From a virus: 43,645 bases of DNA. The stretch lies in IMG/VR virus record IMGVR_UViG_3300001847_000418, positions 1 to 43,645 of that record; one strand, 5' to 3'. Positions 6,590 to 43,645 of the stretch are shown here, in pieces (position 1 is the first letter of the stretch; every line of letters starts with the position of its first letter). Made by a program: the position numbers and the translations under genes. The notes beneath the pieces are model-generated. The model was not told the DNA's origin and made no database searches. It saw only the letters and a program-made list of their open reading frames with translations.

Positions 6590-6598
6590 TGCACAGCC

Positions 6599-7912: not shown

Positions 7913-7950
7913 TCGACACTCCCACCTATTCCATGTAGGAGGTCGAGAGC

Positions 7951-8349
7951 ATGATCTGTCGCGTCAATGTCGCGGTAAAGATCCCTCACTGGACCCCTCG
8001 TGCACAGGTCACCTTGATTGGTGACCTGTCGTCATGTGGGCAGAACCTGACTGAGGGAACAGTTACATTCCACAAACCCGGTCGACTCACCGTCTCTGTC
8101 ATCAGCGGCGGTGATATGTGGCAGGGTGAAATCATTGCAGAGGGTGAGCCTGTTGCCGTTGAACAACCCGTCGAACCATCGGTCGAACAGCCAGTCGAGC
8201 AGTCGACCGAGCAACCAGCCGAACAGCCAACCGTCGTGGCTGAAGTCGTCGAAGAAAAAACGGAAGAAGCCCAAGAACCGGAACACTCTGAAGAAACCCC
8301 AACCGTTACCTCCCGTCGAGTGGGACGGTTCGACCGCTATGCGAGGTAA
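7951..8349 (+). CDS. Hypothetical protein with Glu-Gln-Pro repeats
   Basis: A 132-residue protein with an AGGAGG site. The first 60 residues form a compact beta-like domain (MICRVNVAVKIPHW to WQGEIIAEGE). It is followed by a low-complexity run of V/S/T-E-Q-P units at about 70-92, an acidic stretch (EVVEEKTEEAQEPEHSEE) and a basic end (RRVGRFDRYAR). The repeat region is probably an extended acidic linker. No family was recognised. It sits directly before the endolysin. Confidence 0.5.
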   Translation: MICRVNVAVKIPHWTPRAQVTLIGDLSSCGQNLTEGTVTFHKPGRLTVSVISGGDMWQGEIIAEGEPVAVEQPVEPSVEQPVEQSTEQPAEQPTVVAEVVEEKTEEAQEPEHSEETPTVTSRRVGRFDRYAR

Positions 8350-8351
8350 TC

Positions 8352-8798
8352 ATGCAGCTAAGTGAACACTTCACCTTAGCCGAGATGACCGTCAGCGAGA
8401 CGGCAGCTCGCCAAGGACTGAACAACACCCCGGATGCAGACAGCACTGCCAACTTGAAGCGTACCTGCGCCATGCTGGAGAAGGTGCGTGCCCTGGTCGG
8501 TGGTCCTATCGTGGTGACCTCGGGTTACCGTGGACCAGCGGTCAATGCTGCGGTGGGCGGGAGCAAGACCAGTGCTCATATGACTGGACGTGCTGCTGAT
8601 ACCAACCGTCCTGGGCTCACACCTCGGCAGTTTGCTGAGAAGGTCAAGCCCAAGATGAAAGAGTTCGGGATCGACCAGATGATTCTGGAGTTCGATAGCT
8701 GGGTGCATCTCGGCATTGCCCGTGTCGGTGAAACGCCCCGCTGTCAGATCCTGACCATCAACAACAGTACCGGCGGTTATGTCGAGGGGCTGTGCTAA
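8352..8798 (+). CDS. Endolysin, peptidase M15A-type D,D/L,D-carboxypeptidase
   Basis: A 148-residue single-domain enzyme expected to cut peptidoglycan peptide bridges for lysis or tail entry. Motifs of the zinc peptidase M15A family are visible: SGYRGPAVNAAVGGSKTSAH (about 57-76), then MTGRAAD, and SWVHLGIA. Likely Zn ligands are His76 and Asp83 (SxHxxGxAxD) and His119 (WVH). The length is typical of a catalytic domain without a cell-wall-binding domain. The stop overlaps the next small frame (TAATG). No export signal is seen, so it would need a holin such as the candidates at 6063-6589. Confidence 0.88.
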   Translation: MQLSEHFTLAEMTVSETAARQGLNNTPDADSTANLKRTCAMLEKVRALVGGPIVVTSGYRGPAVNAAVGGSKTSAHMTGRAADTNRPGLTPRQFAEKVKPKMKEFGIDQMILEFDSWVHLGIARVGETPRCQILTINNSTGGYVEGLC

Positions 8799-8923
8799 TG
8801 CTCTATACAAATCCGACACTTCGTGCGATAGTCGAATCGGGCACACCTTGCCCGACTGCTGACAGCCTCGATGACACCGCTCCGACGCTGAAGGTAGCTG
8901 TTGCGAACAGGCGGCCTGGATAA
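8798..8923 (+). CDS. Short coupled ORF between endolysin and 8923 gene
   Basis: An open frame of 41 codons starts inside the endolysin stop (TAATG) and ends inside the start of the next gene (TAATG). Such perfect chaining favours translation. The product begins MLYTNPTLRAIVESG and ends VAVANRRPG. It has no membrane segment or recognised motif. It could simply be a leader that keeps ribosomes moving to the next gene. Confidence 0.45.
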   Translation: MLYTNPTLRAIVESGTPCPTADSLDDTAPTLKVAVANRRPG

Positions 8924-9177
8924 TGGCCACCTTCGCCCCCGAACTCGTCATTGACCACGGCATTCAGCCTCAGATCGACGGTCATACAAACACCTTTCAG
9001 ACGCAGTACGACTACATCCCCGGAACATTAACCATGTACTGGAACGGCCAAGCTGCCGTCCACACCAAGGGGCTCTTGGAGTTGTCGCACAATACGTTCA
9101 TTCTCGAGCCCGATGTCCACGGCCAACTCCTCTACCCGACACCTGACGACAATGTATGGGTCACTTACATGGCCTAA
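8923..9177 (+). CDS. Small tail-fibre-associated protein
   Basis: An 84-residue beta-rich protein. The element 'Q.DYIPGTLTMYWNGQAAVH' followed by a strand and 'DNVWVTYM' resembles the phage tail-fibre module 'y.pGt..vylNG....' that ends many adhesins. The last 70 residues of the large fibre at 9198-12680 show the same layout (ANMMVWANGMMLTQGAGYDY). It probably forms a small capping or knob subunit of the fibre. Placement just before the fibre gene supports this; direct evidence of interaction is absent. Confidence 0.55.
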   Translation: MATFAPELVIDHGIQPQIDGHTNTFQTQYDYIPGTLTMYWNGQAAVHTKGLLELSHNTFILEPDVHGQLLYPTPDDNVWVTYMA

Positions 9178-9197
9178 CGTAGAGGAGATCGAACAGG

Positions 9198-12100: not shown

Positions 12101-12680
12101 CGATACCTCGCTGGCGACCTCGGTTAACGCTGAGGCTTCGTCTCGGGCTGCCGCCGATGCCTCTCTGGCCTCGGATGTCAGCACGGAGGCTTCAGCCCGC
12201 GCTGCTGCTGTCTCGGCTGAAGCCTCTGCCCGCACTGCGGCTGATGCTTCCCTGGCCAGCGACCTGTCCAGCGAAACGTCTGCCCGTACTTCGGCTGACG
12301 CTTCTCTGACGGCGAGCATCAGCTCGGAGGCTTCGACCCGTACTGCTGCGGATGCGTCGCTCGCCAGCGATCTGTCTGCCGAAGTGTCGGCTCGTGCCAG
12401 CGAGATCACCCGCATCGAGGGTATGATTACCGACGTGTCGCCTGCCTTCGCTGTGACGGAGTTGACCTCCGATGCCGCAGTCGATGACACTATCACGGTT
12501 CCTGCCTACACCGTTGGTGCCGGCGCGAACATGATGGTGTGGGCGAACGGTATGATGCTCACCCAGGGTGCCGGTTACGACTACGTCGAAGTCGGTACTG
12601 TCGGGACCATCAGCACCACCATTCAGGTGAAGGTGCCGATGAACTCCGGTTGGGTCATCCGCACGCTGATCCTCAAGTAA
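9198..12680 (+). CDS. Large tail fibre with Ala/Ser-rich coiled-coil repeats
   Basis: A 1160-residue fibre with a GAGGAG site. Residues about 1-70 look like a virion-binding head. Two arms made of repeats such as EASARTAADASLASDL (about 160-300 and 880-1075) are expected to form a trimeric coiled-coil shaft. Each arm is preceded by a matching block (AYTD..I..L.NGAP..LDTLKE.ADALGND; nt about 9412-9612 and 11643-11843). The central part (about 300-810) is a beta-rich body with a lectin-like look. The C-terminal 75 residues contain the VWANGMMLTQG knob module. Codon choice in the central part is richer in T-ending codons than in the arms, suggesting module exchange. The likely role is receptor binding. 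Confidence 0.85.
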   Translation: MAFTIFDLKKQVKAPATYRSDIARVDFRSQTNMEGFSHVLLSMFADLLGEQEFDTAPADTIHSLHGRLNTVEGDDATSGSIAKSLKDAKAYTDGAITSLVNGAPAVLDTLKEIADALGNDPNLSGTLATQISGLGTRLDTIEGDAQTSGSIQHALSQAEAYTDSEVSSEASVRAAADASVRADLSAEASRAEDAEASLANAVSAEASARDAADASVQSSLSSEVSRAQSAEASLAGEISAEASARDAAISDAMNQETSAAVSLADGLAAEISRATSAEESVAVSLGWEISRAQTAEVELYTSLTNHENANTDPHGQTLTQTNMQVSNQLTVGDPNTGVNALRIDPNGPDGMAVVVGDYNAFAVQGMSGLDVRLPATFQKYAAFYNNVNFVGYNSNDPSQSALVDFATNARFEAPVQIGTLGQNSPMAPGFESFLDAGTATYDSNSATLTVTGTTNGGNGWGYKVGTIDANPAKGTWSVSASISSNGTFLGFVSTPTRANLNKTSQDFDRFDYGVTVQYDPTVPQTASLSLQTPGGEYQVIQVPSWQLGDGNWFDNESGRPYPLECRFDQGNKLKLQMSPAGVVSVWVGPYQLAEFTTVADVRWLNGSNGWSIVVGGNQYGSTDDHTVSGLSVVTGTNQTGDPGILDVETAAKFAYDVSFKGPTFTVGDFSRPDTTINIGASDTHLVNLHGSVRFKGYSVDVQNFLSANRMGFDRMFGREANIREINIRDNGWIYVPGGEINVDGGGTIYTQKNFETNTGGDIKVGNDLVWRNFNGNQGNEVRLIDYLNGMNQTINDNQNNDNMRIVDLNDRVTTLEGSAGVSGSVANALSVAEAYTDQKISDLINGAPEALDTLKELADALGNDANLAATITTQLAGVSSDISAEASARTSADASLESSLSTEASARTAADASLASDISSEASARAAAVSLEASSRVAGDASLESALSAEASDRAAAVSSEASARIAADTSLATSVNAEASSRAAADASLASDVSTEASARAAAVSAEASARTAADASLASDLSSETSARTSADASLTASISSEASTRTAADASLASDLSAEVSARASEITRIEGMITDVSPAFAVTELTSDAAVDDTITVPAYTVGAGANMMVWANGMMLTQGAGYDYVEVGTVGTISTTIQVKVPMNSGWVIRTLILK
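11844..12420 (+). repeat. Degenerate tandem repeat coding for fibre coiled coil
   Basis: About ten imperfect in-frame copies of a unit coding for EASAR-[TA]-AADASLAS-[DS]-[LIV] with insertions of a half unit (EASARAAAVS). A second, shorter array lies at about 9690-10080. The repeats differ mainly at third codon positions, so the protein repeat is more constant than the DNA, consistent with selection on the coiled coil. Confidence 0.75.
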
Positions 12681-12698
12681 GGGCTAGGTGCAAGACGG

Positions 12699-12728
12699 AG
12701 GGGGAGGCTTTTGGCCTCCCCCTCTTTC
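12699..12728 (+). terminator. Rho-independent terminator after tail fibre
   Basis: A perfect 10-bp stem (AGGGGGAGGC at 12699-12708, GCCTCCCCCT at 12714-12723) with a 5-base loop is followed by CTTTCC. It sits 18 bases past the fibre stop, before the gene on the opposite strand. On the other strand there is no T-run, so it acts mainly for rightward transcripts. Confidence 0.85.
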
Positions 12729-12743
12729 CTGCTGTAATTGGTG

Positions 12744-13088
12744 TTATTGATTCGCAGCTTCCGCAACGTCGGCGTCAACACCGCTCAGTTTGTTCTGTTC
12801 AGACGGTTTGAGCAGCATGGCCCAACCCTTCAGGTACTCCAGGGTTTTGTCGGACGGCGCGTTCACTGCGATGCTCTGACACACCGCTTCGGCAGCGACG
12901 GCGCGCAACGTGACATACCTCAGCAATTTGAGCATGCCAGCCCAACCGTCTTTCTTCTCATCGAAGCCGGTAATACCCATGGCGTCGATGACATCCTTCA
13001 AATGGCTGGACGGCTTGCGCTTCGGTGCGGGTTTCTTATCTGCGTCCTTGGTAACATCTCGCGTACTGCGATGCCGTGCGTCAGCCAT
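12744..13088 (-). CDS. Hypothetical basic protein, lone leftward gene
   Basis: A 114-residue protein. The ATG at 13088 is chosen because AAGGAGAT lies 6 bases upstream; the open frame extends further 5' without such a site. The N-terminus is basic (DKKPAPKRKPSSHLKDVIDA), followed by two helical stretches and an acidic end (DADVAEAANQ). It is the only leftward gene inside the rightward structural block and lies between the fibre terminator and an inverted repeat at 13190-13218, so it probably has its own promoter. A DNA-binding or regulatory role is possible but unproven; no family was recognised. Confidence 0.6.
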   Translation of the reverse strand: MADARHRSTRDVTKDADKKPAPKRKPSSHLKDVIDAMGITGFDEKKDGWAGMLKLLRYVTLRAVAAEAVCQSIAVNAPSDKTLEYLKGWAMLLKPSEQNKLSGVDADVAEAANQ

Positions 13089-13253
13089 ACCGATCTCCTT
13101 CATACTGAGCTGTTCAGTCACTAGGTTATCAGGCTTCCGGCAACAGTGCGATCGAACATGGCTTGAGTTATCATAGGTGGAGTCGGATTGGTGCAGCAGC
13201 TTCAGCAACTGCTGCACCGCCGACATCGCTGAACAGGACATAGGGGATGACCC
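13089..13253. promoter_or_regulatory. Divergent intergenic region with 10-bp inverted repeat
   Basis: This 165-base gap between divergent starts (13088 leftward, 13254 rightward) carries no credible gene. It contains a perfect inverted repeat (GGTGCAGCAG at 13190-13199, CTGCTGCACC at 13209-13218, 9-base spacer). On the - strand TATGAT lies near 13170-13175 and could be a -10 box, though no good -35 is visible. The layout suggests divergent promoters with an operator, or an RNA stem; both are inference. Confidence 0.4.
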
Positions 13254-13799
13254 GTGATTGCATATCCAGGCGGTGACGCTTACATATACCTAGACGTCAC
13301 GAGAAACGGCGAGCCGGTTGTCACCGAAACCCAACCGATGATTGTCGCTCTCATCCACGACGGTTTCAACATGCTCGCAAATCCCGTTGTTATGGGCAAT
13401 CTCGATGTCGGTCTTTATGTCGGTGCTATACCTATCCCGCCGAGTGCCCCGCAGGGTAACTATTTGGCGGTGATGCAGTTCCGGCGGTTGGGCAAGGACC
13501 GCCGTGAGACAGTCTACATCGATGTTGTGAAAGATGCGTCGTCGACACTCACCCCGATCATCAACTCCGTCAGGGATTTTGTCGAAGCACTCCTACCACA
13601 GAACACCCGTTACGAGTTTGTCCGCGCCGAGCAGAACGTACCTGCCAGGAACGTCGCCGCCGGTCGGTTGGACAAGATCAAGTTCATGCACAAGCACCCT
13701 GCCGATCAAGATTACACGACGCCGGTTGCTCAAGGTGAACGGTTGTTCGTCTACGAGACAGTCGGTGATGTCAACCCGATCATCGTGGAGGGCATGTAA
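13254..13799 (+). CDS. Putative baseplate / tail-tip protein
   Basis: A 181-residue protein with a GTG start preceded by AGGGGA at proper spacing. The N-terminal 90 residues read as an Ig-like beta sandwich (YIYLDVTRNGEPVVTETQP to RRETVYIDVV). The second half is more polar and ends in a compact beta segment. The downstream protein at 13924-14265 has a related-looking beta domain. The stop overlaps the next start (TAATG). A tail-tip or upper-baseplate role is inferred from fold impression and context. Confidence 0.55.
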   Translation: MIAYPGGDAYIYLDVTRNGEPVVTETQPMIVALIHDGFNMLANPVVMGNLDVGLYVGAIPIPPSAPQGNYLAVMQFRRLGKDRRETVYIDVVKDASSTLTPIINSVRDFVEALLPQNTRYEFVRAEQNVPARNVAAGRLDKIKFMHKHPADQDYTTPVAQGERLFVYETVGDVNPIIVEGM

Positions 13800-13924
13800 T
13801 GGACATCGGTGCATTCACCATCGCAACCGAAGGATTCATCAACTACACCAGTGCCGACTCACCGCCTGTTGAACTCGAGATCGCCGGTCACGACATCGAA
13901 CTGCTGTTTGTTGAGGATACCTGA
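13799..13924 (+). CDS. Short coupled ORF
   Basis: A 41-residue frame (MDIGAFTIATEGFINYTSAD... ending LLFVEDT) linked on both sides by overlaps: TAATG with the upstream gene and ATGA with the downstream gene. Codon composition looks like its neighbours. No motif was recognised. Perfect chaining of stops and starts is the main support. Confidence 0.5.
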   Translation: MDIGAFTIATEGFINYTSADSPPVELEIAGHDIELLFVEDT

Positions 13925-14265
13925 TGTCCTGTATCACACGAGTCTATTACAAGGGTGACCGTCGACCCAGTTTGAAACTGAAGTTGGTTACCCGTGATGT
14001 CACCGGTAACGTCATACCGGTTGACCTATCGACGGCAGCCTCGGTTACCTTCTCCATGTCGAAGTCTGGTAAGGATGGGGTGGCTCTGTTCACCAACAAC
14101 ATGACCATCCTCGAAGCGATCAACGGTATCGTTGTCTACCTGTGGCAAGACGGTGATCTCGGGACCGTCGGTAAGTACCGCGGTTGGATCACCGTCAACT
14201 GGACAGGCACGGAGAGGGAGACGAAGGGCGATCTTGAGATAACGGTCAAGCAACGCCCTGCCTAG
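13924..14265 (+). CDS. BppU-like baseplate protein, Ig-like domain
   Basis: A 113-residue protein, one beta domain. The pattern 'YKGDRRPSLKLKLVTRDVTG', then 'PVDLSTAASVTFSM', then 'NGIVVYLWQDGDL' and 'YRGWITVNW' matches the N-terminal domain of phage baseplate upper (BppU) proteins, in which a drive for 'd..p.l.~.l.d..G.pvdLt.a..v.f' is typical. It would contribute to the tail-tip scaffold that carries receptor-binding parts. It is the last gene of the rightward block; its stop lies 4 bases from the convergent thyX stop. Confidence 0.65.
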   Translation: MSCITRVYYKGDRRPSLKLKLVTRDVTGNVIPVDLSTAASVTFSMSKSGKDGVALFTNNMTILEAINGIVVYLWQDGDLGTVGKYRGWITVNWTGTERETKGDLEITVKQRPA

Positions 14266-30449: not shown

Positions 30450-30500
30450 ATCGGAAGCTCTTTCCCAAGCGGAGCTAGACCATGCGCTGGTCGACTATCA

Positions 30501-30532
30501 ACCGGGGCGGTTGGTCACGTAGCCGCCCCGGT
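30501..30532 (-). terminator. GC-rich hairpin after HIRAN-like gene
   Basis: A perfect 10-bp inverted repeat (ACCGGGGCGG 30501-30510, CCGCCCCGGT 30523-30532) with a 12-base loop stands 8 bases past the stop at 30541. There is no T-run after it on the - strand, so it is either a weak terminator or an RNA-stabilising stem. The same kind of stem recurs in the right arm. Confidence 0.5.
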
Positions 30533-30540
30533 TAACCATC

Positions 30541-32524: not shown

Positions 32525-32561
32525 ATACTCCTCCGACTGTGTCTAACAGTCCACTGACTTA

Positions 32562-32592
32562 GGGTGCGGGCCGCTCATAACGACCCGCACCC
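32562..32592 (-). terminator. GC-rich hairpin after zinc-ribbon gene
   Basis: A perfect 9-bp inverted repeat (GGGTGCGGG 32562-32570, CCCGCACCC 32584-32592) with a 13-base loop stands 6 bases past the stop at 32598. There is no clear T-run. It probably ends or stabilises the upstream transcript and resembles the long stems in the right arm. Confidence 0.5.
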
Positions 32593-32597
32593 ATATG

Positions 32598-36566: not shown

Positions 36567-36577
36567 GTGTCACCTCC

Positions 36578-36648
36578 TGCCGTGTTAACGGCACAGTAAT
36601 AACCGAGAGCATTAGCCCTCTGTCCAACCCACCGCACGGGTGGGCTGG
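36578..36648 (-). promoter_or_regulatory. Intergenic cassette a: long stem plus short stem at ribosome binding site
   Basis: The long stem (36624-36648, about 9 pairs with one mismatch, GCACG loop) lies 8 bases past the stop of the upstream gene. The short stem (TGCCGT/ACGGCA, 36578-36593) abuts GGAGG of the next gene. The GTCATGGG motif is absent here; TTGGACA and TTATTA stand between the stems and could be promoter-like. Confidence 0.5.
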
Positions 36649-36656
36649 CCGGAACG

Positions 36657-37163
36657 CTACATCTCGCTGCAACCTTCGATGTCTGTCTCGTAGTGCTCAG
36701 TACCTTCGTCGCTGATGTCGGCTATCTCACCGTCCTCGATACCGATGTTGCTGTAACTGACCGATTCGTCGGCGCTGATATTATCGAGCTGATCCTTGAT
36801 GGATTCCGCGACGTCATCCTCCTGACCCGGCTTGCATGTGAACTCAACCGTCACCCGGCGGGTGTATGTCACGGTGAACTCTGCCGTGTACGCCTTGGTC
36901 GCATGGTTACTGAACCACCAGTCCACTGCATGGGTGGCAATGGCTTTGCTGATCTCGTAATCGTCAGCATCCAACTCGTCGGCGTGCTCCACCACCCGCT
37001 CCAGTTCACGCCAGCGCAGACGCAAACCGAGCATACCCTCTTCGATCACCTTGTCGATGAGGTCGATGTCGCTGGGCGTCAGGTCATCGAGGTCGTTCGA
37101 CCCCGTGTACAGCCGCTTGATTGCGACGAGGGCGGCGGCTGTGTCCTTGGTGGTGTCGTTCAT
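36657..37163 (-). CDS. Hypothetical acidic protein
   Basis: A 168-residue protein; ATG 37163 has GAAGGAGA upstream, behind a CCGG stem. An in-frame ATG at 37241 also has an ideal site (AAGGAGGAAGT) and would add MPQCACTACVSTDILIVPVA and 6 more residues, so a longer or dual form is possible. The protein starts with helices (DTAAALVAIKRLY) and ends in a beta part (AEFTVTYTRRVTVEFTCKPG) and an acidic tail (EDGEIADISDEGTEHYETDI). No family was recognised. Confidence 0.6.
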   Translation of the reverse strand: MNDTTKDTAAALVAIKRLYTGSNDLDDLTPSDIDLIDKVIEEGMLGLRLRWRELERVVEHADELDADDYEISKAIATHAVDWWFSNHATKAYTAEFTVTYTRRVTVEFTCKPGQEDDVAESIKDQLDNISADESVSYSNIGIEDGEIADISDEGTEHYETDIEGCSEM

Positions 37164-37175
37164 GGTGTTCTCCTT

Positions 37176-37192
37176 CGCCGGTGCTACCGGCA
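37176..37192 (-). promoter_or_regulatory. Cassette b short stem
   Basis: GCCGG/CCGGC stem with a 5-base loop, directly before the GAAGGAG site of the 37163 start. It is the same type of element as the short stems of the other right-arm cassettes. Confidence 0.45.
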
Positions 37193-37263
37193 CAATAAGA
37201 ATGTCTGTACTAACGCACGCTGTGCATGCACATTGTGGCATACTTCCTCCTTGACAACGGCCA

Positions 37264-37294
37264 ATCAAAACGGGTACGCTTGATAGCGTACCCG
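37264..37294 (-). terminator. Terminator after gene 37308-37757
   Basis: A perfect 9-bp stem CGGGTACGC (37271-37279) / GCGTACCCG (37286-37294) with a 6-base loop. On the - strand it is followed by TTTTGATT. It lies 14 bases past the stop at 37308. This is the most terminator-like stem among the right-arm intergenic elements left of 42000. Confidence 0.7.
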
Positions 37295-37307
37295 CAACTG
37301 CTTGCCT

Positions 37308-37757
37308 TTAGAACGACTGGACTTCACCGACGCTGTCGGTATCGACCCCACTAAAGAAGCTCTTCAACCGAGCAACCGTAACCGGATCGAACGTCACCGA
37401 CTTACCTGCGATCTCACCGGTAACAGTCCAGATCCAAGCGTAGTCCACCGTGCTATAGGCGTACCCGTCTGTGCGGCTTACCGGCTCAACCGGGACAGCC
37501 ATCAGCTTAATCCCAGCCGTCTCGATCACCCTGACCGGCTCAACCTTGACAGGCAGGATGCTGGACGGCTCACCGTTGGTGAACATGACCTCGTGATACT
37601 TACCGTTGCTGTCGGTGACGACCGCAACGGCGCTGTTGTGATAGTCACCGTCCTTGTAATAACGAACGGTCGACCGTGCGAATATGGTGTACTCCACGCC
37701 GTCGAACGTGACGACGTTAGCCTTGACCGTCTTGCCATTGATCTTCGTAACTCCCAT
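37308..37757 (-). CDS. Hypothetical beta-rich protein
   Basis: A 149-residue protein with a GGAGG site directly after a TGCCGG/CCGGCA stem. Beta-rich throughout (ANVVTFDGVEYTIFARSTVR; NSAVAVVTDSNGKYHEVMFT), with a second half around DYAWIWTVTGEIAGKSVTFD. No recognised family, no membrane segment. Confidence 0.6.
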   Translation of the reverse strand: MGVTKINGKTVKANVVTFDGVEYTIFARSTVRYYKDGDYHNSAVAVVTDSNGKYHEVMFTNGEPSSILPVKVEPVRVIETAGIKLMAVPVEPVSRTDGYAYSTVDYAWIWTVTGEIAGKSVTFDPVTVARLKSFFSGVDTDSVGEVQSF

Positions 37758-37770
37758 GATGTTTGCCTCC

Positions 37771-37847
37771 TGCCGGTATCAACCGGCAACTTGCATATGC
37801 AGGGCACGGTTGCCCATGACAACGGCCCACCTTTGAGGGGTGGGCCG
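37771..37847 (-). promoter_or_regulatory. Intergenic cassette c
   Basis: Reading leftward: a perfect 9-bp stem CGGCCCACC/GGTGGGCCG (37823-37847), the motif TTGTCATGGG, a small GGGCA/TGCCC stem (37802-37815), then TGCCGG/CCGGCA (37771-37788) abutting AGGAGG. It has all parts of the recurring right-arm cassette. Confidence 0.6.
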
Positions 37848-37870
37848 CTGGCTGGATGACCGTTAGTTAG

Positions 37871-39004
37871 TTAGACCGTCAGGATTTTCTTGGCCAGTGC
37901 AAGCGCCTGGTCTTTCTTATCCTGAGAGTAGCCGTTGATGTTGGATGCCAGCCGCGCATCGAACACAGCTTCCGGCGTTTTGTCACCACGGATCGTCGGC
38001 ACATGCTCGTGGTCGAGGTAATAGGTGATGGCGTTGACCGCCGACCACAAGGTGCCGGCGCTCATGTCGGCACCGGGCTGCGTTTCGAGCAGCGTATCGA
38101 GGCGCTCGCTTGCCTCGCTGCGACCGTCACCATACTTTTCCATAGCCATGCGGAACAACTCCTGTTCCTCACGGAACCGGAGTTGCAACTTGAAGTCTGT
38201 GCTGTCGTCACCGGTCATGGCCGGGGCAGTCGGCTCGACAGGGCGTCCACGCTTGGGGAACACCTCATCGAAGATGTACTGCATCTGGCGCTGATTCAGT
38301 TCCTTGCTGGCCATGGCATTGCAGAACTCGCGGAACTCTGCTGCCTCCTTCTGAATGAGTCCCAGCTCCTGCATGATGCCAGCCGTGGCGACGTGGATAC
38401 CTTTGGTGTGGCGCAGCTTGATAACTTTGGTGGCCTGCGCCTTACCGAAGTTGATCGTGTTAGCGCATACCGCACGGATGGCGGTGATGAAAGCCCACAA
38501 CGCTGTACCGTCGTGGCCGGAATGGATGGTCAGCACCAGAATCATACCGTCGTCGGTCTTGCCGATGACAAAGCTCTCACCGATCTGCAAGGACGCACCG
38601 AACTGTGCGCCCGACTTCATGATGAACGCCGTGTCGATGATGCGCTCCTTGCCGACGATGGCGCGCAGGGCGTCGGCAAAGTTCAACACGGTATAGCTCG
38701 CCGGCTGTACCCCGACGCACACCGGCTTCATCCAACCGGACTTAGTGTGATGCTTCTGCATCAGGGACTTGTAACCGGTGTCGACGTAGATCTTCTCGCC
38801 GTCAGGCCCGGTCGAGGCAACACGCACCGGGATCTCAACGGTGGGCGCGAAGATCGTGGGGCACGACTCGATCAGCTCATCCGGGGTGGCCAGCTCGGGC
38901 CGGGGGACGAAACCGCCGTGCCAAGTGTCCCCGAAAAGGGAGCAGAAAGTGCCGTGTGCGGTAACAAGATCGACCTTTTCCAGGTTGTCGATGAGATGTG
39001 CCAT
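37871..39004 (-). CDS. DUF932 phage/plasmid-related protein
   Basis: A 377-residue protein; ATG 39004 has AGGAGG upstream. It follows the DUF932 (phage/plasmid-like TIGR03299) layout: DTGYKSLMQKHHTKSG, then FVIGKTDDGMILVLTIHSGH, IRAVCANTINFGKAQATKVI and LRHTKG. The conserved 'R.vCaNt...a......i.HT' element is present. This family is widespread on phages and plasmids; its function is not established, though some members have been linked to defence or recombination systems. It is the largest protein of the accessory arm. Confidence 0.8.
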   Translation of the reverse strand: MAHLIDNLEKVDLVTAHGTFCSLFGDTWHGGFVPRPELATPDELIESCPTIFAPTVEIPVRVASTGPDGEKIYVDTGYKSLMQKHHTKSGWMKPVCVGVQPASYTVLNFADALRAIVGKERIIDTAFIMKSGAQFGASLQIGESFVIGKTDDGMILVLTIHSGHDGTALWAFITAIRAVCANTINFGKAQATKVIKLRHTKGIHVATAGIMQELGLIQKEAAEFREFCNAMASKELNQRQMQYIFDEVFPKRGRPVEPTAPAMTGDDSTDFKLQLRFREEQELFRMAMEKYGDGRSEASERLDTLLETQPGADMSAGTLWSAVNAITYYLDHEHVPTIRGDKTPEAVFDARLASNINGYSQDKKDQALALAKKILTV

Positions 39005-39025
39005 GTCTGGCGTCCTCCTACTATC

Positions 39026-39101
39026 CCCGGCATACATACCGGGTCAGCTATACGTCAGGCTGGTGAGCCTGCAACGCCCCACCTCTGTCACAGGTGGGGC
39101 G
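39026..39101 (-). promoter_or_regulatory. Intergenic cassette d
   Basis: The long stem is CGCCCCACCT/AGGTGGGGCG (39075-39101, loop CTGTCAC on the + strand), then a small AGGCT/AGCCT stem, then CCCGG/CCGGG (39026-39043) five bases before the AGGAGG of the DUF932 gene. The loop is the same as in cassette h although the stems differ. Confidence 0.6.
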
Positions 39102-39108
39102 GTACGGA

Positions 39109-39330
39109 TCACCCCCAATCCGAGAAAACATAGCCGTTGCGGGACACGAACAGCCGGGTCGGCAACCCGGCTGACAGGCCAAAGCCTGATTGAAACGCCT
39201 CTCCGCAACGGAGCAGACGATCCCGCACCAGGGCGGGATAGCCCGTGAGGGCCTTCGCTGCGATGTTCACGTCCGCAGGGAGAAGCCCCCGCTGGACGAG
39301 GTTGCGAACGATAATGGTCTGGTTTTTCAT
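39109..39330 (-). CDS. Small hypothetical protein
   Basis: A 73-residue protein from ATG 39330 with GAGGAGG upstream, directly behind a TGCCGG/CCGGCA stem. Helical first half (NQTIIVRNLVQRGLLPADVN), then PALVRDRLLRCGEAF and a C-terminal strand (TRLFVSRNGYVFSDWG). No family was recognised. Confidence 0.6.
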   Translation of the reverse strand: MKNQTIIVRNLVQRGLLPADVNIAAKALTGYPALVRDRLLRCGEAFQSGFGLSAGLPTRLFVSRNGYVFSDWG

Positions 39331-39341
39331 GATTCCTCCTC

Positions 39342-39397
39342 TGCCGGTATTCCGGCAACTTGTGATGAACCCATGACGGCCCACCTCGAAAGATGGG
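39342..39397 (-). promoter_or_regulatory. Intergenic cassette e
   Basis: The long stem is CCCACCT/AGATGGG (39380-39397, one mismatch) 11 bases past the upstream stop, then GTCATGGG, then TGCCGG/CCGGCA (39342-39357) abutting GAGGAGG. Confidence 0.55.
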
Positions 39398-39407
39398 ATG
39401 GTTGTTA

Positions 39408-39701
39408 TTACGATCGAGGCAGCTTGGTGATGATCCGCTCGGCGGCGCCCTGTCCAGCGTCACGGTCGTACATAGCGACCCGCATCGTGTCCTTGCTGAT
39501 GTCGGACTTCAGCGGGTGGCCGAACAGGTAGTCGAAGTAGAGGTCGCCTCCGCACTTCATGCGGTGGTCGATGACTTCTTGAGCTTGTTCCTTGGTGATG
39601 GCTCCACGATCTTGCAGCATACCCATACCGATTGCGGGTGTGCCGTTGTGGAGAGCAGCCAGAAGTTCAGCCTTGTCGATGCCTTTGATGTCGATTTCCA
39701 T
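39408..39701 (-). CDS. Hypothetical phage protein with C-terminal YDRD motif
   Basis: A 97-residue protein with GAAGGAGA before ATG and no cassette in front. It starts MEIDIKGIDKAELLAALHNG, continues IGMGMLQDRGAITKEQAQEV and has DYLFGHPLKSDISKDTMRVA, then MYDRDAGQGAA. The pattern 'm.i.i.gi....ll..l......G.G.l......i...ea...i......fDYl.Gr..k.di........yDrd.G' is shared by a common family of small phage and bacterial hypothetical proteins. The function is unknown. Confidence 0.65.
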   Translation of the reverse strand: MEIDIKGIDKAELLAALHNGTPAIGMGMLQDRGAITKEQAQEVIDHRMKCGGDLYFDYLFGHPLKSDISKDTMRVAMYDRDAGQGAAERIITKLPRS

Positions 39702-39728
39702 GGGTTTTCTCCTTCACTAGTGATGGGG

Positions 39729-39890
39729 TCACCGGATCAAGAATGGGGGCAACTCCACCCCCGTCGAGGTCACGACGGTGACCTCATACCCGCGAGACTG
39801 AAGCTCGCGGGTAACAACCGCGGCCCCACGCGGGGACCACGAACCGACGAACTGAGGGATGCCATCGTAAAAAGCATAGACGTGGATCAT
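39729..39890 (-). CDS. Small hypothetical protein (53 residues)
   Basis: A frame from ATG 39890 behind AGGAGG at 5-base spacing, ending at TGA 39729-39731. The product is MIHVYAFYDGIPQFVGSWSP followed by a helix-strand part (AAVVTRELQSRGYEVTVVTS) and FLIR. The beta-alpha-beta pattern and an upstream GCCCG/CGGGC stem like its neighbours support a real gene. No family was recognised. Confidence 0.65.
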   Translation of the reverse strand: MIHVYAFYDGIPQFVGSWSPRGAAVVTRELQSRGYEVTVVTSTGVELPPFLIR

Positions 39891-39904
39891 GTCTGCCTCC
39901 TATC

Positions 39905-39981
39905 GCCCGCATGTACCGGGCCACTTGATTGTACTACCGGTTGGTCTGGAGTCATCCGTCGTACTTGACGGATGACTCCAG
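39905..39981 (-). promoter_or_regulatory. Cassette f with 15-bp perfect stem over a stop codon
   Basis: A perfect 15-bp inverted repeat (39946-39960 and 39967-39981, loop of 6) spans the last codons and the TGA (39952-39954) of the upstream gene. Further on, GCCCG/CGGGC (39905-39921) stands just before the AGGAGG of the 53-residue gene. The long stem thus doubles as coding sequence on one arm. Confidence 0.55.
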
Positions 39982-40260
39982 CCATCGCCATTCCGCCCGC
40001 TCGCGGGCGACGGTTGTGAGGATCGCTGCCGCCTCTGAGGCGTCGGCGGTATCGTGGGATATAACCCCACGATTAGCGGCGAACCGCTGCCGCTTAGCGA
40101 GATCCCATGCGCGCGCCTCCTCGTCGCGGGCCTGCTCGAGGAGGAGTCGCAGATCGTCGATCACCTTGTCCGACTCGGTGGTCGGGCGGGTGTTTTCACA
40201 CACCCACCGACCCCCGCGGACGATGCGGACGGAATTGTCCGCATTGTAAATAACTTCCAT
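39952..40260 (-). CDS. Hypothetical helical protein, N-terminus MEVIYNA
   Basis: A 102-residue protein from ATG 40260 with GAGGAGG upstream. It starts MEVIYNADNSVRIVRGGRWV and continues as a long helix (KVIDDLRLLLEQARDEEARA; RQRFAANRGVISHDTADASE), ending WRWLESSVKYDG. The first seven residues and the DNA around the start equal those of the next gene to the right (40387-40797), although the proteins differ otherwise. Confidence 0.6.
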   Translation of the reverse strand: MEVIYNADNSVRIVRGGRWVCENTRPTTESDKVIDDLRLLLEQARDEEARAWDLAKRQRFAANRGVISHDTADASEAAAILTTVARERAEWRWLESSVKYDG

Positions 40261-40271
40261 GACTCCTCCTC

Positions 40272-40378
40272 CCGGCTGATACCGGATCATACTGAGGGTC
40301 GCCGTTCAAAGGCACCCATGACAAAGCCCCGGCCTTTGTACGGTCGGGGTTCTGACGTGGATGCCCCCTTGCGGGGGC
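40272..40378 (-). promoter_or_regulatory. Intergenic cassette g, copy of cassette i
   Basis: Stems in order leftward: GCCCCC/GGGGGC (40363-40378), a 10-pair stem with GU pairs (40325-40351), then the TTTGTCATGGG motif, then CCGG/CCGG (40272-40285) before GAGGAGG. The part 40295-40378 is almost the same as 41127-41205 apart from the inner stem-loop. Confidence 0.65.
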
Positions 40379-40386
40379 TGGTTGGG

Positions 40387-40797
40387 CTAGTATTTCGTAC
40401 CGTAGCGGTACGCAATACTAGCCCCATGAAAGGTCAGGTACTCGGCCTTCCAGCTTTGTCCCTGGCGCATCGAGCCGAAGTGCTTCAGCTCGATTCCGAA
40501 GTGACTTACCAATTCGGCATTCGCCGGGTTGGCGAGGTGGGGCAGGGGCCGCCCCGACAAGGACGTGTAATGCGTCCCATCTTCGTATTCATCGAAGAGA
40601 AGGGCGGCCCCATTGACCGCAGCGATCCCCCCTTCGGGGGAGGGCACGCCGTGGCCCTCGACAAACGCGGCGATTGCCGCCCGGATATTCTCGACCGATG
40701 CTCCCGCCTCGGCGGCCATGACAACCCCATCCAGGCAGACCCCTTCCGGGGCCTTTCCCGTGATGGCATCGATAACCGCATTGTAAATAACTTCCAT
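40387..40797 (-). CDS. Hypothetical protein, N-terminus MEVIYNA
   Basis: A 136-residue protein from ATG 40797 with GGAGGGGAAG upstream. The first residues MEVIYNA equal those of 39952-40260. The continuation VIDAITGKAPEGVCLDGVVM, AAEAGASVENIRAAIAAFVE is helical; later DEYEDGTHYTSLSGRPLPHL and an end AYRYGTKY are beta-like. No family was recognised. The product differs from its neighbour after the shared opening. Confidence 0.6.
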   Translation of the reverse strand: MEVIYNAVIDAITGKAPEGVCLDGVVMAAEAGASVENIRAAIAAFVEGHGVPSPEGGIAAVNGAALLFDEYEDGTHYTSLSGRPLPHLANPANAELVSHFGIELKHFGSMRQGQSWKAEYLTFHGASIAYRYGTKY

Positions 40798-40811
40798 GAC
40801 TTCCCCTCCTC

Positions 40812-40893
40812 CCGGTCAACCGGAACAGTCGGCAGGCTCATCAGTACGGACATGCCAAGTCCGCAGACCCGCGCCTCTGTCACAGGCGCGGGT
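40812..40893 (-). promoter_or_regulatory. Intergenic cassette h
   Basis: The long stem ACCCGCGCCT/AGGCGCGGGT (40867-40893, loop CTGTCAC on the + strand) lies 7 bases past the upstream stop. The short CCGG/CCGG stem (40812-40823) stands just before GAGGAGGGG. The GTCATGGG motif is missing. Confidence 0.6.
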
Positions 40894-40900
40894 TTCGCCC

Positions 40901-41089
40901 CTATTCGAAGATCACATAGGCCGGTCGGCCCACGATCCGCTCAGCCTCGGCGTTGATCGCCGCGACGGCTTGTTTCCGACTCGGAAACAAGCCGAGATAA
41001 AAGCCGTTAGCCGGCCCGGGGTCCGCCGGATCGTCGGCCCATACATGACCAACTACACCGTCGTCGATTTGATAAGCGGCATGATACAC
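40901..41089 (-). CDS. Small hypothetical protein (GTG start)
   Basis: A 62-residue protein; the GTG at 41089 has GAGGAGG 6 bases upstream, directly after a GCCGG/CCGGC stem. It starts VYHAAYQIDDGVVGHVWADD (Met in vivo), continues NGFYLGLFPSRKQAVAAINA and ends in a strand (RPAYVIFE). The pattern of strand, helix, strand is compact. The open frame extends further 5' through the cassette but has no ribosome binding site there. Confidence 0.65.
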   Translation of the reverse strand: MYHAAYQIDDGVVGHVWADDPADPGPANGFYLGLFPSRKQAVAAINAEAERIVGRPAYVIFE

Positions 41090-41102
41090 GGGTAACCTCC
41101 TC

Positions 41103-41205
41103 GCCGGATTCCGGCACAACAATAACAGGGTCGCCGTCCAAAGGCACCCATGACAAAACCCCGACCGTAGCCGGGGTTCTGACGTGGATGCCCCCTTGCG
41201 GGGGC
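41103..41205 (-). promoter_or_regulatory. Intergenic cassette i, copy of cassette g
   Basis: GCCCCC/GGGGGC (41190-41205), AACCCCG/CGGGGTT (41157-41178), TTTGTCATGGG, then GCCGG/CCGGC (41103-41115) abutting GAGGAGG. The region 41127-41205 repeats 40295-40378; the inner stem has changed on both arms while still pairing. Confidence 0.65.
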
Positions 41206-41213
41206 GTGGATGA

Positions 41214-41579
41214 TTAGTCGTCGTTAGGCGACTGAAAACCCGCCCACTCGGTGAGCACCGGGTACTTTGTGGGGTCCAGTTGGACCACCACAAGGCGGCT
41301 GTACCACTCACTCCCGTAGCTGTCACACCCACGGGGTTCGATCACGAAACTCACCGTGCCCCACACGTCCCCGTGCGGGGCGATGTAGAGTCCGGTGTCC
41401 AGCCGGACCCGATCAAGTTCCGCGAACACCTCGTCCGTCAATGGGCGGGTGCAGTGAGCACCGTGCCCGTGCTGGACGTGGCTAAACCTCACTCCCGAAA
41501 AATCCGGCACGAAGCCGGGGAGGTAGAACTCGTCGCACCGACGAAACATGTTCATGTTGACGCTGATCGTCTCTTCCAT
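41214..41579 (-). CDS. Hypothetical protein
   Basis: A 121-residue protein from ATG 41579 with GAGGAGG upstream, behind a GCCGG/CCGGC stem. The start is EETISVNMNMFRRCDEFYLP, followed by a His-rich turn (RFSHVQHGHGAHC) and beta strands (GTVSFVIEPRGCDSYGSEWY; SRLVVVQLD). Three Cys and several His could bind metal. No family was recognised. Confidence 0.6.
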   Translation of the reverse strand: MEETISVNMNMFRRCDEFYLPGFVPDFSGVRFSHVQHGHGAHCTRPLTDEVFAELDRVRLDTGLYIAPHGDVWGTVSFVIEPRGCDSYGSEWYSRLVVVQLDPTKYPVLTEWAGFQSPNDD

Positions 41580-41586
41580 GGTAAAT

Positions 41587-41665
41587 CCTCCTCTGCCGGA
41601 TTTAACCGGCTCATCTGATGTCAGGGCATGAGCCCATGACAGCCCACCCCTCTCACGGGTGGGCT
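41587..41665 (-). promoter_or_regulatory. Intergenic cassette j
   Basis: The long stem AGCCCACCC/GGGTGGGCT (41641-41665) follows the upstream stop by 8 bases. Then GTCATGGG, a small GGGC/GCCC stem (41624-41635), and GCCGG/CCGGC (41595-41610) next to GAGGAGG. The 27 bases 41587-41613 recur exactly at 41973-41999. Confidence 0.6.
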
Positions 41666-41673
41666 GGCTGGGA

Positions 41674-41967
41674 TCACGCGAACAGGTGAACCGGGTCAAC
41701 TGACGCTGACGTCGGGCACCCCGGCATATACTCTGCGGCCTCCTGCCGCAGCAGATCGATGGCTCGGCGGGCGGCATCAACCGTGCGGCACGTCTTACTG
41801 TACTCGACGTAGCCGTTGTCGGCCCCGTCATCGAACACTGTTAAGGAAGACAGCCAGACAATGTCAGGCCGATTGTCTAGGAGCGTCGTGCTGACTTTCT
41901 CGAAACTCTCCGAGCTGGGGTCCGTGTAGCACTCGAAAACGCCATATGTGTCACTCTTGTACCGCAT
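41674..41967 (-). CDS. Small hypothetical protein
   Basis: A 97-residue protein from ATG 41967 with GAGGAGG upstream. Aromatic strand start (MRYKSDTYGVFECYTDPSSE), then a middle (LDNRPDIVWLSSLTVFDDGA) and a helix (CRTVDAARRAIDLLRQEAAE). The layout resembles small phage proteins that copy a beta-alpha fold. The function is unknown. Confidence 0.6.
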   Translation of the reverse strand: MRYKSDTYGVFECYTDPSSESFEKVSTTLLDNRPDIVWLSSLTVFDDGADNGYVEYSKTCRTVDAARRAIDLLRQEAAEYMPGCPTSASVDPVHLFA

Positions 41968-41972
41968 AGGAA

Positions 41973-41999
41973 CCTCCTCTGCCGGATTTAACCGGCTCA
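41973..41999 (-). repeat. Exact 27-base copy of the cassette j ribosome-binding module
   Basis: Bases 41973-41999 equal 41587-41613. They hold GAGGAGG plus the GCCGG/CCGGC stem (41981-41996). Here no long stem or GTCATGGG stands directly upstream; a frame ending at 41997 overlaps instead. Confidence 0.75.
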
Positions 42000-42176
42000 A
42001 TAGATTATCGGACGCTCACCGCCCGTGTGAACGGTCACCACCCCCGTATGCCAGGGTAGCTTCTGCCTGACGACAGCGACGTCTTTAGCGCCGGTTGGGA
42101 TAAGCGTATAGGCTAAGTGCCGTAACCTGTATCCCCGGTAACCGGGCGTCACCGTCACCCTCGTGACCGCTCGCAC
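41997..42176 (-). CDS. Possible small basic protein
   Basis: A frame of 59 codons from GTG 42176 reads VRAVTRVTVTPGYRGYRLRH, LAYTLIPTGAKDVAVVRQKL and ends TGGERPIIY. The residues look like a natural beta-rich basic domain, but no clear ribosome binding site exists. The open frame continues upstream through terminators, which is not credible as coding. Evidence rests on composition only. Confidence 0.35.
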   Translation of the reverse strand: MRAVTRVTVTPGYRGYRLRHLAYTLIPTGAKDVAVVRQKLPWHTGVVTVHTGGERPIIY

Positions 42177-42181
42177 GGACG

Positions 42182-42213
42182 GGCGGATTGTACCATTCTT
42201 GGGACAATCCGCC
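42182..42213. promoter_or_regulatory. 10-bp inverted repeat
   Basis: GGCGGATTGT (42182-42191) and ACAATCCGCC (42204-42213) form a perfect inverted repeat with a 12-base spacer. On the - strand TACAAT, a possible -10 box, falls in one arm and TTGACG lies 20 bases before it, a long spacing. It could be an operator over a promoter for the leftward genes. Confidence 0.4.
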
Positions 42214-42220
42214 GTCAATG

Positions 42221-42259
42221 GAAAAGCCCGTCCGTACCCTATGCAGGATACGAACGGGC
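42221..42259 (-). terminator. Second leftward terminator-like stem
   Basis: On the - strand GCCCGT (and inner CGTA pairs) ... ACGGGC (42226-42259) is followed by TTTTCC. It directly follows the stem at 42269-42287, so the two form a tandem terminator. Confidence 0.6.
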
Positions 42260-42287
42260 GAAAAGAAAGCCCCGTACCTAACGGGGC
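42259..42287 (-). terminator. Strong leftward terminator
   Basis: A perfect 7-bp stem GCCCCGT/ACGGGGC (42269-42275, 42281-42287) with a 5-base loop, followed on the - strand by TTTCTTTTCG. It would end transcripts coming from the gene at 42497-43579 or from a promoter in the gap. Confidence 0.8.
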
Positions 42288-42440
42288 AAAAGAGCACCTT
42301 TCCATGCCGCTCAACGGGTTACACTTGTGAACAAGCCGCCGCCTGTGAGCGGCGCAAGTGTAGAAGCAAAGCATTCCGCCGTCTAAACGGTGAGCGTCAC
42401 AGTCTCACCGTCACAGGGTTAAACCCCGGCGGTATATAAC
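42259..42440 (-). ncRNA. Candidate structured RNA or long structured 3' region
   Basis: Between the stop of the 42497 gene and the strong terminator the - strand has no credible coding frame. It forms several stems: ACGGTGAG/CTCACCGT (42387-42411) and a two-part stem ACACTTG/CAAGTGT enclosing CGCCGC/GCGGCG (42321-42361), then the terminator stem. GTTATATA near 42432-42439 might act as a promoter element. This could be a small RNA or just a structured 3' untranslated region; the sequence alone does not decide. Confidence 0.3.
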
Positions 42441-42496
42441 CGGCCTACGTGATGCCGGGACTAATGCCCCGTCAGCACTCAAGCGGTGAGCGTTTC

Positions 42497-43579
42497 TTAG
42501 GCGAGACTGATAGCGCCCACGATACCAAGGCCTGACCGGACCACGAGCCCGATAGCAGACTTGGTACGGGGTATCCCATAGGTGATGTGGCCGCTGTCAT
42601 CCATCCCCCATGATGGGGTGACGTAGGCTGCCAAATCCCGATCGGGACGGGCGATCAGATCGCTAAAGAAACGGCGCACCGCGCCGGTATGCTTTGCTAC
42701 CCCGTCTAACACGGGCGCCACATCCCCCGCCATTGTGCGACGCACGGCGGGTTTAGCAGCGGCATGGAAACCCCGCCGCATGGGACGGCGGGAAACTTTC
42801 AAGGAACGGCGGACGACAATAGCACCGCCTATGCTTTCCATAACGGCGCACAATAGCTGAGCCGTATAGCGGATGCGCCCATGGGCGCTAAATTGGCGGA
42901 TGCCATCGGCCAGAACGTATAGGCTGACACGGCCATTGTCCCGGTACGCTTCCGCCGTTGAGCGGTACTCGTCACCGTTCAATCCGGTATCAGATGCAGC
43001 GGCGCCGCACAATGCGGACCATAACACCGCCTCTTCACCCTGCAGGCCCATAGCTGCAGCGTCGATAGGCTGTACCGTCTCACCTGCAGCGGTGAGAAGC
43101 TGACGCAAATAGCGCCGTGTTTCGGCACTGGCCAGTCCACGCCGGGACAAGTCAAGGCCAGTGAGGCGGGACAATTCGACGGTCAGCTTGTGGCGCATAT
43201 CCACGGCGGCTGAATACTGCCGTTGGTTGTTTGCCAGTGTCACCACGTCTAACCGGGCGATACGTCTGGCGAGATACTGTAACCGGGACCGTCCAGTGTT
43301 ATCGGTACCGATCGCACCGTCAGCGTCAGCACGGCGGGAAACATGCCGCACCTTGCCTAAAGATATCGGACTATCGGCACGACGTACCCTGTCAACGGTA
43401 GGCACATCATGGACTAGTGTAGTCCAGTCGGTGATGGTTCGACCGATAAACTGCCGGTCATACCGGACAATCCCCCGCACATACTGACGAGGGACGGCAT
43501 ACCGGGATACGGCGCCGCAAACGGACACGACGGGGCGAGCGGTGTTAACCGCCGTTCCGATCGTGCCGTGTGCTAACAT
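42497..43579 (-). CDS. Hypothetical Arg-rich protein
   Basis: A 360-residue protein. ATG 43579 is used (GGGGGA upstream); an in-frame GTG at 43600 is the alternative. Basic and Arg-rich (SRLQYLARRIARLDVVTLAN; VRRSLKVSRRPMRRGFHAAA), with helices in the middle (TAETRRYLRQLLTAAG-like at about 150-165) and a hydrophobic Gly-rich end (IGLVVRSGLGIVGAISLA). No family was recognised. The charge suggests nucleic-acid or membrane-surface contact. Its codon use, with many CGG/CGC/GCA codons, differs from the neighbours, so it may be a later arrival. Confidence 0.55.
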   Translation of the reverse strand: MLAHGTIGTAVNTARPVVSVCGAVSRYAVPRQYVRGIVRYDRQFIGRTITDWTTLVHDVPTVDRVRRADSPISLGKVRHVSRRADADGAIGTDNTGRSRLQYLARRIARLDVVTLANNQRQYSAAVDMRHKLTVELSRLTGLDLSRRGLASAETRRYLRQLLTAAGETVQPIDAAAMGLQGEEAVLWSALCGAAASDTGLNGDEYRSTAEAYRDNGRVSLYVLADGIRQFSAHGRIRYTAQLLCAVMESIGGAIVVRRSLKVSRRPMRRGFHAAAKPAVRRTMAGDVAPVLDGVAKHTGAVRRFFSDLIARPDRDLAAYVTPSWGMDDSGHITYGIPRTKSAIGLVVRSGLGIVGAISLA

Positions 43580-43623
43580 CTCACCGTCCCCCGTCTTCAC
43601 TTATGCCTTAATCCGTTCATGAC

Positions 43624-43645
43624 GGCGCACCGTATACGGTGCGCC
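43624..43645. promoter_or_regulatory. Perfect 22-bp palindrome at window edge (cassette m, truncated)
   Basis: The half-site GGCGCACCGTA is followed at once by its reverse complement, with no spacer. On the - strand GTCATG follows it, as after the long stems of the other cassettes, so this is most likely the long stem of another intergenic cassette in front of the 42497-43579 gene. Whatever lies to its right is outside the window. Confidence 0.6.

What the first reader, a model, noticed from the sequence alone, without database searches (positions are those of the whole stretch)
36567..43645. Recurring intergenic cassette with two stem-loops in front of most right-arm genes
Seen: leftward from 43645 to 36567 most genes are preceded by the same arrangement. 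A long GC-rich stem (7-15 bp) follows the upstream stop, then often GTCATGGG, then a short GCCGG/CCGGC-type stem lying directly against GAGGAGG. Examples are 37771-37847, 39026-39101, 39342-39397, 40272-40378, 40812-40893, 41103-41205 and 41587-41665. The genes between are unrelated. Known: mobile promoter/stem-loop cassettes (PeSL type) flank accessory genes in T4-like phages. Inference: here a different phage uses a modular terminator-plus-leader unit that lets small genes be swapped. The short stem next to the ribosome binding site could also be the target of an RNA-binding protein or ribonuclease.
Basis: partly seen in the sequence, partly recalled or inferred. Interest (0 to 1): 0.8.

Follow-up and report, generated by a model that had tools for sequence, protein, structure and literature searches.

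The report
Repeated stem-loop gene-start cassette in phage
A little-known virus, probably of actinobacteria, puts the same kind of folded control cassette in front of a dozen small unrelated genes, probably a start signal whose message begins with a hairpin touching the ribosome-binding site; Gordonia and Mycobacterium phages carry looser versions of the same design.

Summary
The recurring cassette is real. Of the 12 leftward genes starting between 36566 and 41967, 11 have a 5-7 bp GC hairpin (S) lying 0-4 nt from the Shine-Dalgarno (SD) sequence; one more copy lies outside the reported range, before the gene starting at 32524. Arm sequences and loop lengths differ between copies while pairing is kept, so S and T look selected as hairpins, not as fixed DNA sites. 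A SigA-like -35/-10 signal peaks directly upstream of S, with the predicted start at or near the base of S. Best reading: terminator-like stem, promoter, 5'-terminal leader hairpin and SD; a largely one-gene expression cassette. It has spread by copying: copies C, D and E recombine upstream unit, SD and first seven codons in front of unrelated proteins. No sequence relative was found, but the same architecture with other sequences recurs in Gordonia cluster DR and some Mycobacterium phages; CaiB's 'repeated intergenic regions' were published without interpretation. New variant of a known kind; promoter and leader functions are inferred, not shown.

The parts
41973..42031 (-). Cassette A: SigA-like promoter TTCACA-16-GATAAT (42031-42004) and S hairpin GCCGG-TTAAAT-CCGGC (41996-41981) beside GAGGAGG; gene A starts 41967
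   Evidence: promoter scan; CM E=4e-5
41580..41673 (-). Cassette B: T stem 41666-41640, M stem 41635-41624, S hairpin 41610-41595; gene B starts 41579
41090..41213 (-). Cassette C: stem 41205-41190, T stem 41178-41157 (TACG loop, TTTT), bulged M stem, TATTGT, S hairpin 41116-41102; gene C starts 41089 (GTG)
40798..40900 (-). Cassette D: T stem 40893-40867 (loop GTGACAG), M stem GCGGAC/GTCCGT, S hairpin around 40825-40810; gene D starts 40797
40261..40386 (-). Cassette E: upstream unit nearly identical to C, SD and first 7 codons nearly identical to D, S hairpin near 40286; gene E starts 40260
39891..39980 (-). Cassette F: 14-bp T stem 39980-39947 overlapping the stop codon of gene E, promoter ATGACT-16-TACAAT (39955-39928), S hairpin GCCCG/CGGGC 39921-39905; gene F starts 39890
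39331..39407 (-). Cassette H: T stem 39397-39380, GTCATGGG, no M stem, S hairpin 39358-39341; gene H starts 39330
39005..39108 (-). Cassette I: T stem 39101-39075 (loop GTGACAG), M stem 39071-39056, TATAGC, S hairpin CCCGG..CCGGG 39043-39026; gene I (DUF932) starts 39004
37758..37870 (-). Cassette J: T stem 37848-37822, GTCATGGG, M stem 37815-37802, S hairpin 37788-37771; gene J starts 37757
37164..37307 (-). Cassette K: 11-bp T stem 37295-37270 with TTTGATT tail (best terminator of the set), S hairpin 37192-37176; gene K starts 37163
36567..36656 (-). Cassette L: T stem 36648-36624, M stem 36620-36605, TATTAC, S hairpin GCCGT/ACGGC 36593-36578; gene L starts 36566
32525..32597 (-). 12th copy, outside the reported range: T stem 32592-32562, S hairpin GACTGT/ACAGTC 32551-32535 beside GGAGGAG; gene (Pfam GP88) starts 32524. 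Not used to build the model
   Evidence: (E 0.28)

Best explanation
Each cassette is a compact expression unit for one gene, or at most a few. A GC stem (T, sometimes followed by M) closes the upstream message or protects its 3' end. A SigA-like promoter follows, with its -10 in the AT-rich linker. The new message begins at or near the base of hairpin S, which lies against the SD. A 5'-terminal hairpin would shield the mRNA from 5'-end-dependent decay. It would also keep the SD free of pairing with upstream sequence, so any coding sequence placed behind it is expressed predictably. Copies have duplicated and recombined, bringing unrelated small genes under the same control. Shown: recurrence, pairing kept while sequence changes, position of the promoter-like signal, mosaic junctions. 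Inferred: promoter activity, transcript start, mRNA protection, termination.
For: Recurrence and non-chance. Structure rather than sequence: the S structure pairs 84.8% of cells against 77.2 +/- 2.5 in shuffles (4/500 as high), and sliding by 1-3 columns drops it to 29-52%. Loop length varies from 3 to 8 nt. With 3' arms taken from other copies, mean pairing falls to 60% for S and 53% for T. T stems of D and I share the loop GTGACAG but differ at four compensated pairs. The 12th copy has an S stem of different sequence. Promoter: -35/-10 score in position is 95.5 against 73 expected at random positions (0 of 5000) and 0 of 1000 shuffles. The score peaks at 8.68 directly upstream of S, falling to about 6-7.9 when slid, and exceeds 35 control starts (P=1.4e-4). 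The only two strong leftward promoters beside genes in the arm, A and F, predict a start at the first base of S. Parallel: 28 units of SigA-like promoter, hairpin and SD in the right arms of Nigel, Ligma, NHagos, Rinkes and Mariokart, against about 0 in shuffles. 5' hairpins stabilise bacterial mRNA (PMC3997798). Mosaic copying.
Against: Promoter matches are weak in B, D, H and copy Z (Z scores 6.0, below the random mean). In E and K the best -10 lies so close to S that a normal start would fall inside the 5' arm. The scoring rule was chosen after seeing the sequences, and the linkers are AT-rich anyway: the -10 alone gives P=0.018 against shuffled linkers. Arms were picked by eye, so the 'own' pairing there is high by construction. 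Most T stems lack a U-tract. No related genome was found, so conservation between species could not be tested.
Confidence: 0.55

Rival explanations
1. Processing cassette: one long leftward transcript is cut in the AU-rich linker between the GC hairpins. T and M then protect the new 3' end and S the new 5' end, giving separate stable messages without local promoters.
For: Linker is 60% A+T against 43% in the genome. M and T are covarying hairpins, which suits transcribed RNA. Most T stems lack U-tracts. Several copies have poor promoters.
Against: The SigA-like signal peaks exactly at the expected place. A and F have good promoters. The parallel Gordonia and Mycobacterium units carry clear promoters.
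Confidence: 0.2
2. S (and perhaps the T loop GTGACAG) is the binding site of a phage RNA-binding protein or ribonuclease that switches the right-arm genes together.
For: S has a conserved core (CCGG/CCGG) and sits where a bound protein would block ribosomes. T loops are alike in D, I and B.
Against: Loop sequence and length vary freely, and F and copy Z change the stem sequence. No candidate binding protein was identified among the proteins searched.
Confidence: 0.12
3. S and M are DNA operators for a dimeric repressor or activator, like the 17-bp dyads of cluster O or the ESAS repeats of cluster K.
For: They are inverted repeats beside promoter-like sequences. Gordonia and Nigel units do carry extra dyads around the -10.
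Confidence: 0.06
4. Recent duplication debris: copies resemble each other only because they were copied lately, with no function.
For: C/E and A/B contain near-identical stretches.
Against: Other copies have diverged yet keep pairing and position beside the SD. Hairpins are confined to gene starts.
Confidence: 0.04

Closest known systems
Repeated intergenic regions of Gordonia cluster DR (Sourvirus) phages, e.g. CaiB genes 42, 71, 77, 80, 81, 85 (PMC9302106)
   Same: Repeated before small right-arm genes; GCGGGA/ACCCGC arms form a hairpin, in CaiB genes 81, 71 and 85 within a few nt of the SD; SigA-like -35/-10 upstream; a DUF932 gene at the same right-end place.
   Different: Different sequences; hairpin starts 10-14 nt after the -10 and is often 8-20 nt from the SD; a dyad overlaps the promoter; no regular long T stem. 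The publication reports only the conserved blocks, with no hairpin or promoter reading.
Unannotated promoter-hairpin units in Mycobacterium phages Nigel and Rinkes (found here)
   Same: TTGACT-TTACTGT or TAATGT promoter, GGCGGG/CCCGCC leader hairpin, SD, before right-arm genes.
   Different: Different sequences; hairpin 10 or more nt from the SD.
Cluster K mycobacteriophage SAS/ESAS (PMC3203893; PMC11373665)
   Same: Repeat at start codons of right-half genes of different families; inverted repeat; ESAS contains SigA-like promoters; one case has a terminator-like stem upstream.
   Different: SAS is an almost invariant 13-mer; the ESAS inverted repeat is not supported as an RNA hairpin. Here sequence varies and pairing is kept.
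Microbacterium cluster EF and EG repeats (PMC7302621)
   Same: Start-associated repeats in right-arm gaps.
   Different: Fixed sequence motifs; no reported covarying hairpin.
PeSL mobile cassettes of T4-type phages (Arbiol et al. 2010, doi 10.1093/gbe/evq006; the text could not be read here, PeSL details are from general knowledge)
   Same: Promoter plus stem-loop units associated with gene shuffling.
   Different: Host group, sequences and the leader hairpin against the SD.

Membership tests
Cluster K SAS/ESAS | 13-bp SAS GGGATAGGAGCCC at starts (up to 2 deviations) | tested here: not met
   The window's S/SD consensus is GCCGG..CCGGC-AGAGGAGG. Read directly, no SAS stands at any of the 12 starts.
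Cluster K SAS/ESAS | Fixed-sequence 17-bp inverted repeats without RNA covariation | tested here: not met
   Arms differ between copies and pairing is kept.
Cluster K SAS/ESAS | SigA-like promoter inside the unit | tested here: met
   Positional signal; strong only in A and F.
Gordonia DR promoter-hairpin repeats | Same sequence unit | tested here: not met
   CM R1 finds no significant match in Ligma, Nigel, Anaya or 60 further loci. blastn of the Ligma unit hits only Gordonia phages.
Gordonia DR promoter-hairpin repeats | Architecture: promoter, leader hairpin, SD, small gene, repeated in the right arm | tested here: met
   the promoter part is weaker in the window.
T4 PeSL cassettes | Early promoter plus stem-loop flanking swapped genes | tested here: inconclusive
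   Stem and promoter-like signal present and copies recombined; gene swapping between related phages not testable because no relatives were found.
Intrinsic terminator (T stem) | GC stem followed by a U-tract | tested here: not met
   Met in K, partly in C and E; 0-3 T in the first 8 nt in the other copies.
Known Rfam RNA families | Match at gathering score | tested here: not met
   No match in the window.

The most novel reading that the evidence does not exclude
A self-copying, structure-defined expression module: natural selection keeps a hairpin locked against the SD while its sequence drifts, making a general insulated landing pad into which new small genes are placed. This would be a shared design principle of actinophage right arms that arose with unrelated sequences in several phage groups.
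Probability: 0.3. Interest if true: 0.6.

Novelty: new variant of a known kind. Interest (0 to 1): 0.42.

Why it matters
Right arms of actinophages are full of small genes of unknown function. A common promoter plus 5'-hairpin leader would explain how freshly acquired genes are expressed at once and why such arms are so plastic. It also gives a readable signal for finding true gene starts, and a natural counterpart of the insulated leaders used in synthetic biology. It connects published but uninterpreted repeats (CaiB, cluster K, cluster EF) to a testable mechanism.

Tried and rejected
Relatives: blastn of the arm against 50,697 phage records gave nothing. IMG/VR scans with DUF932, PolA, helicase and a 510-aa protein found no relative; ThyX hits shared little or nothing else. 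Genome scans with an S pattern and a 624-aa protein found nothing.

A loose S pattern in IMG/VR gave 120 single matches in mostly GC-rich contigs, judged chance. An exact C/E upstream string gave none.

Upstream ORFs starting at GTCATGGG: short frames end just before or in S in B, E and J but run on in C and H, and the peptides are unlike; dropped as a leader-peptide idea (read from the sequence).

DNA-operator reading of S and M: rejected as main explanation because half-site spacing and sequence vary. Rfam: no match.
Full report
What the window is. The window is a complete IMG/VR record of 43,645 bases, 56.5% GC. It carries PolA, a UvsX-like recombinase, DnaB-like and SNF2-type helicases, a primase-like protein and ThyX. 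It has no nucleotide relative of its right arm among 50,697 phage records, and the structural proteins tested are mostly unlike known families. Its DUF932 protein matches mainly Streptomyces, Mycobacterium, Microbacterium and Gordonia phages at about 24% identity, and the protein starting at 32524 is Pfam GP88. An actinobacterial host is therefore likely, but this is an inference.

The observation. Reading leftwards from 41967 to 36566 there are 12 starts with an SD. Eleven have a GC hairpin (S) 0-4 nt from the SD. A sequence-blind scan finds SD-adjacent hairpins at 8 of 19 testable starts against 0.5 expected, z 7.9, the most extreme of 141 loci. A covariance model of S recovers all 11 copies (E 4e-5 to 0.045). 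Its next hit is a copy not used in building, at 32528-32555, which sits exactly at the SD of the gene starting at 32524 behind its own 14-bp T stem. That hit has E 0.28, so its position, not its score, is the argument. No significant match occurs in 63 loci of other phages.

Anatomy. The order is stop codon, T stem (7-14 bp), in most copies a second stem M, an AT-rich linker of about 10-14 nt (22 in D), S (5-7 bp, loop 3-8), SD, start. In F the T stem spans the stop codon of gene E.

Structure or sequence. Loop lengths vary and arms differ while pairing is kept: GCCGG/CCGGC, CCCGG/CCGGG, TCCGG/CCGGG, GCCCG/CGGGC, GCCGT/ACGGC and, in the 12th copy, GACTGT/ACAGTC. On the alignment 84.8% of cells pair, against 77.2% in shuffles and 29-52% in slid controls; MAFFT misplaces C and F by a column, so this is an underestimate. 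Swapping arms between copies lowers pairing to 60% (S), 65% (M) and 53% (T). T of D and I share the loop GTGACAG with four compensated pair changes. This favours a nucleic-acid hairpin over a protein-bound DNA dyad. With 11 related copies it is good but not overwhelming evidence.

Promoter. Two copies have clear promoters, A (TTCACA-16-GATAAT) and F (ATGACT-16-TACAAT), and both predict the transcript to begin at the first base of S. Over all copies the -35/-10 score is 95.5 against 73 at random positions and is not reached in 1000 shuffles. It peaks when the window ends at S and declines when slid either way, and is higher than at 35 other starts (P=1.4e-4). B, D, H and the 12th copy have poor matches, and the -10 candidates of E and K are too close to S. 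I therefore regard a promoter as likely for most copies but not proven for each.

Termination. K has a proper terminator and C and E partial U-tracts. The remaining T stems have 0-3 T in the next 8 nt, whereas the phage's other terminators have U-runs. 'Terminator' is thus only partly supported; 3'-end protection or processing is as plausible.

Modularity. C and E share a 40-nt block at 93% and a 34-nt block at 100% upstream. D and E share 34 nt (94%) from SD to codon 7. A and B share 27 nt at S. The proteins behind are unrelated (D and E share only MEVIYNA). E is thus a mosaic of a C-like upstream unit and a D-like start, direct evidence that the unit is recombined in front of different genes.

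Parallels. Phages with a DUF932 gene at the same right-end place carry a repeated unit of SigA-like promoter, leader hairpin and SD: Ligma 6, Mariokart 9, NHagos 5, Nigel 5, Rinkes 3, against about 0 in shuffled sequence. Their sequences are unrelated to the window's unit. For CaiB the conserved blocks were published as 'repeated intergenic regions' that may regulate (PMC9302106); reading the sequence shows that they form a hairpin close to the SD. Cluster K ESAS contain SigA-like promoters and inverted repeats (PMC11373665), but their inverted repeats are not supported as RNA hairpins (PMC3203893). Hairpins at or near the 5' end stabilise bacterial mRNAs (PMC3997798).

Verdict. A real, non-chance, structure-conserved and recombining cassette. 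The most likely mechanism is promoter plus 5'-terminal leader hairpin next to the SD, behind a 3' hairpin of the previous message. It is a new variant of a known but poorly understood kind of actinophage start-associated repeat. Function is inferred throughout; no expression data exist.

Noticed in passing
41968-42496: 529-nt gap at the right end, extremely structured (folds at about -262 kcal/mol), with two U-tract terminators (42287-42226) and a long stem GGCGGATTGT..ACAATCCGCC; possibly a non-coding RNA or an origin.
   Followed up: no
43624-43645: The record ends in a perfect 22-bp palindrome GGCGCACCGTATACGGTGCGCC.
   Followed up: no
L153, L154, L156, L157, L158, L239: Unannotated repeated units of SigA promoter, hairpin leader and SD in Gordonia cluster DR and Mycobacterium phages; in Nigel the -35/-10 spacer is itself a palindrome (ACCCGCCTTAGTCGGGT), in Gordonia a dyad ACAACACC..GGTGTTGT overlaps the -10.
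   Followed up: partly
L196 (IMGVR_UViG_3300038443_002312): Another phage with a recurring intergenic unit: a GCCGGCCGGCGG-type hairpin, then TTCCTTCCTCGCGAGGT, where the SD lies inside a CCTCGCGAGG dyad.
   Followed up: no
40385-40425: Gene D ends in a long inverted repeat (GGGCTAGTATT..AATACTAGCCC) that spans its stop codon, as gene E does at 39947-39980.
   Followed up: no
30450-30540: A 14-bp T-like stem (AACCGGGGCGG..CCGCCCCGGTT) before the gene annotated from 30449, without an S hairpin; the real start may be further downstream.
   Followed up: no
1-14265: The rightward structural block has almost no recognisable PHROG or Pfam family (no terminase, portal or capsid found); the phage seems to represent an unsampled group.
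   Followed up: partly
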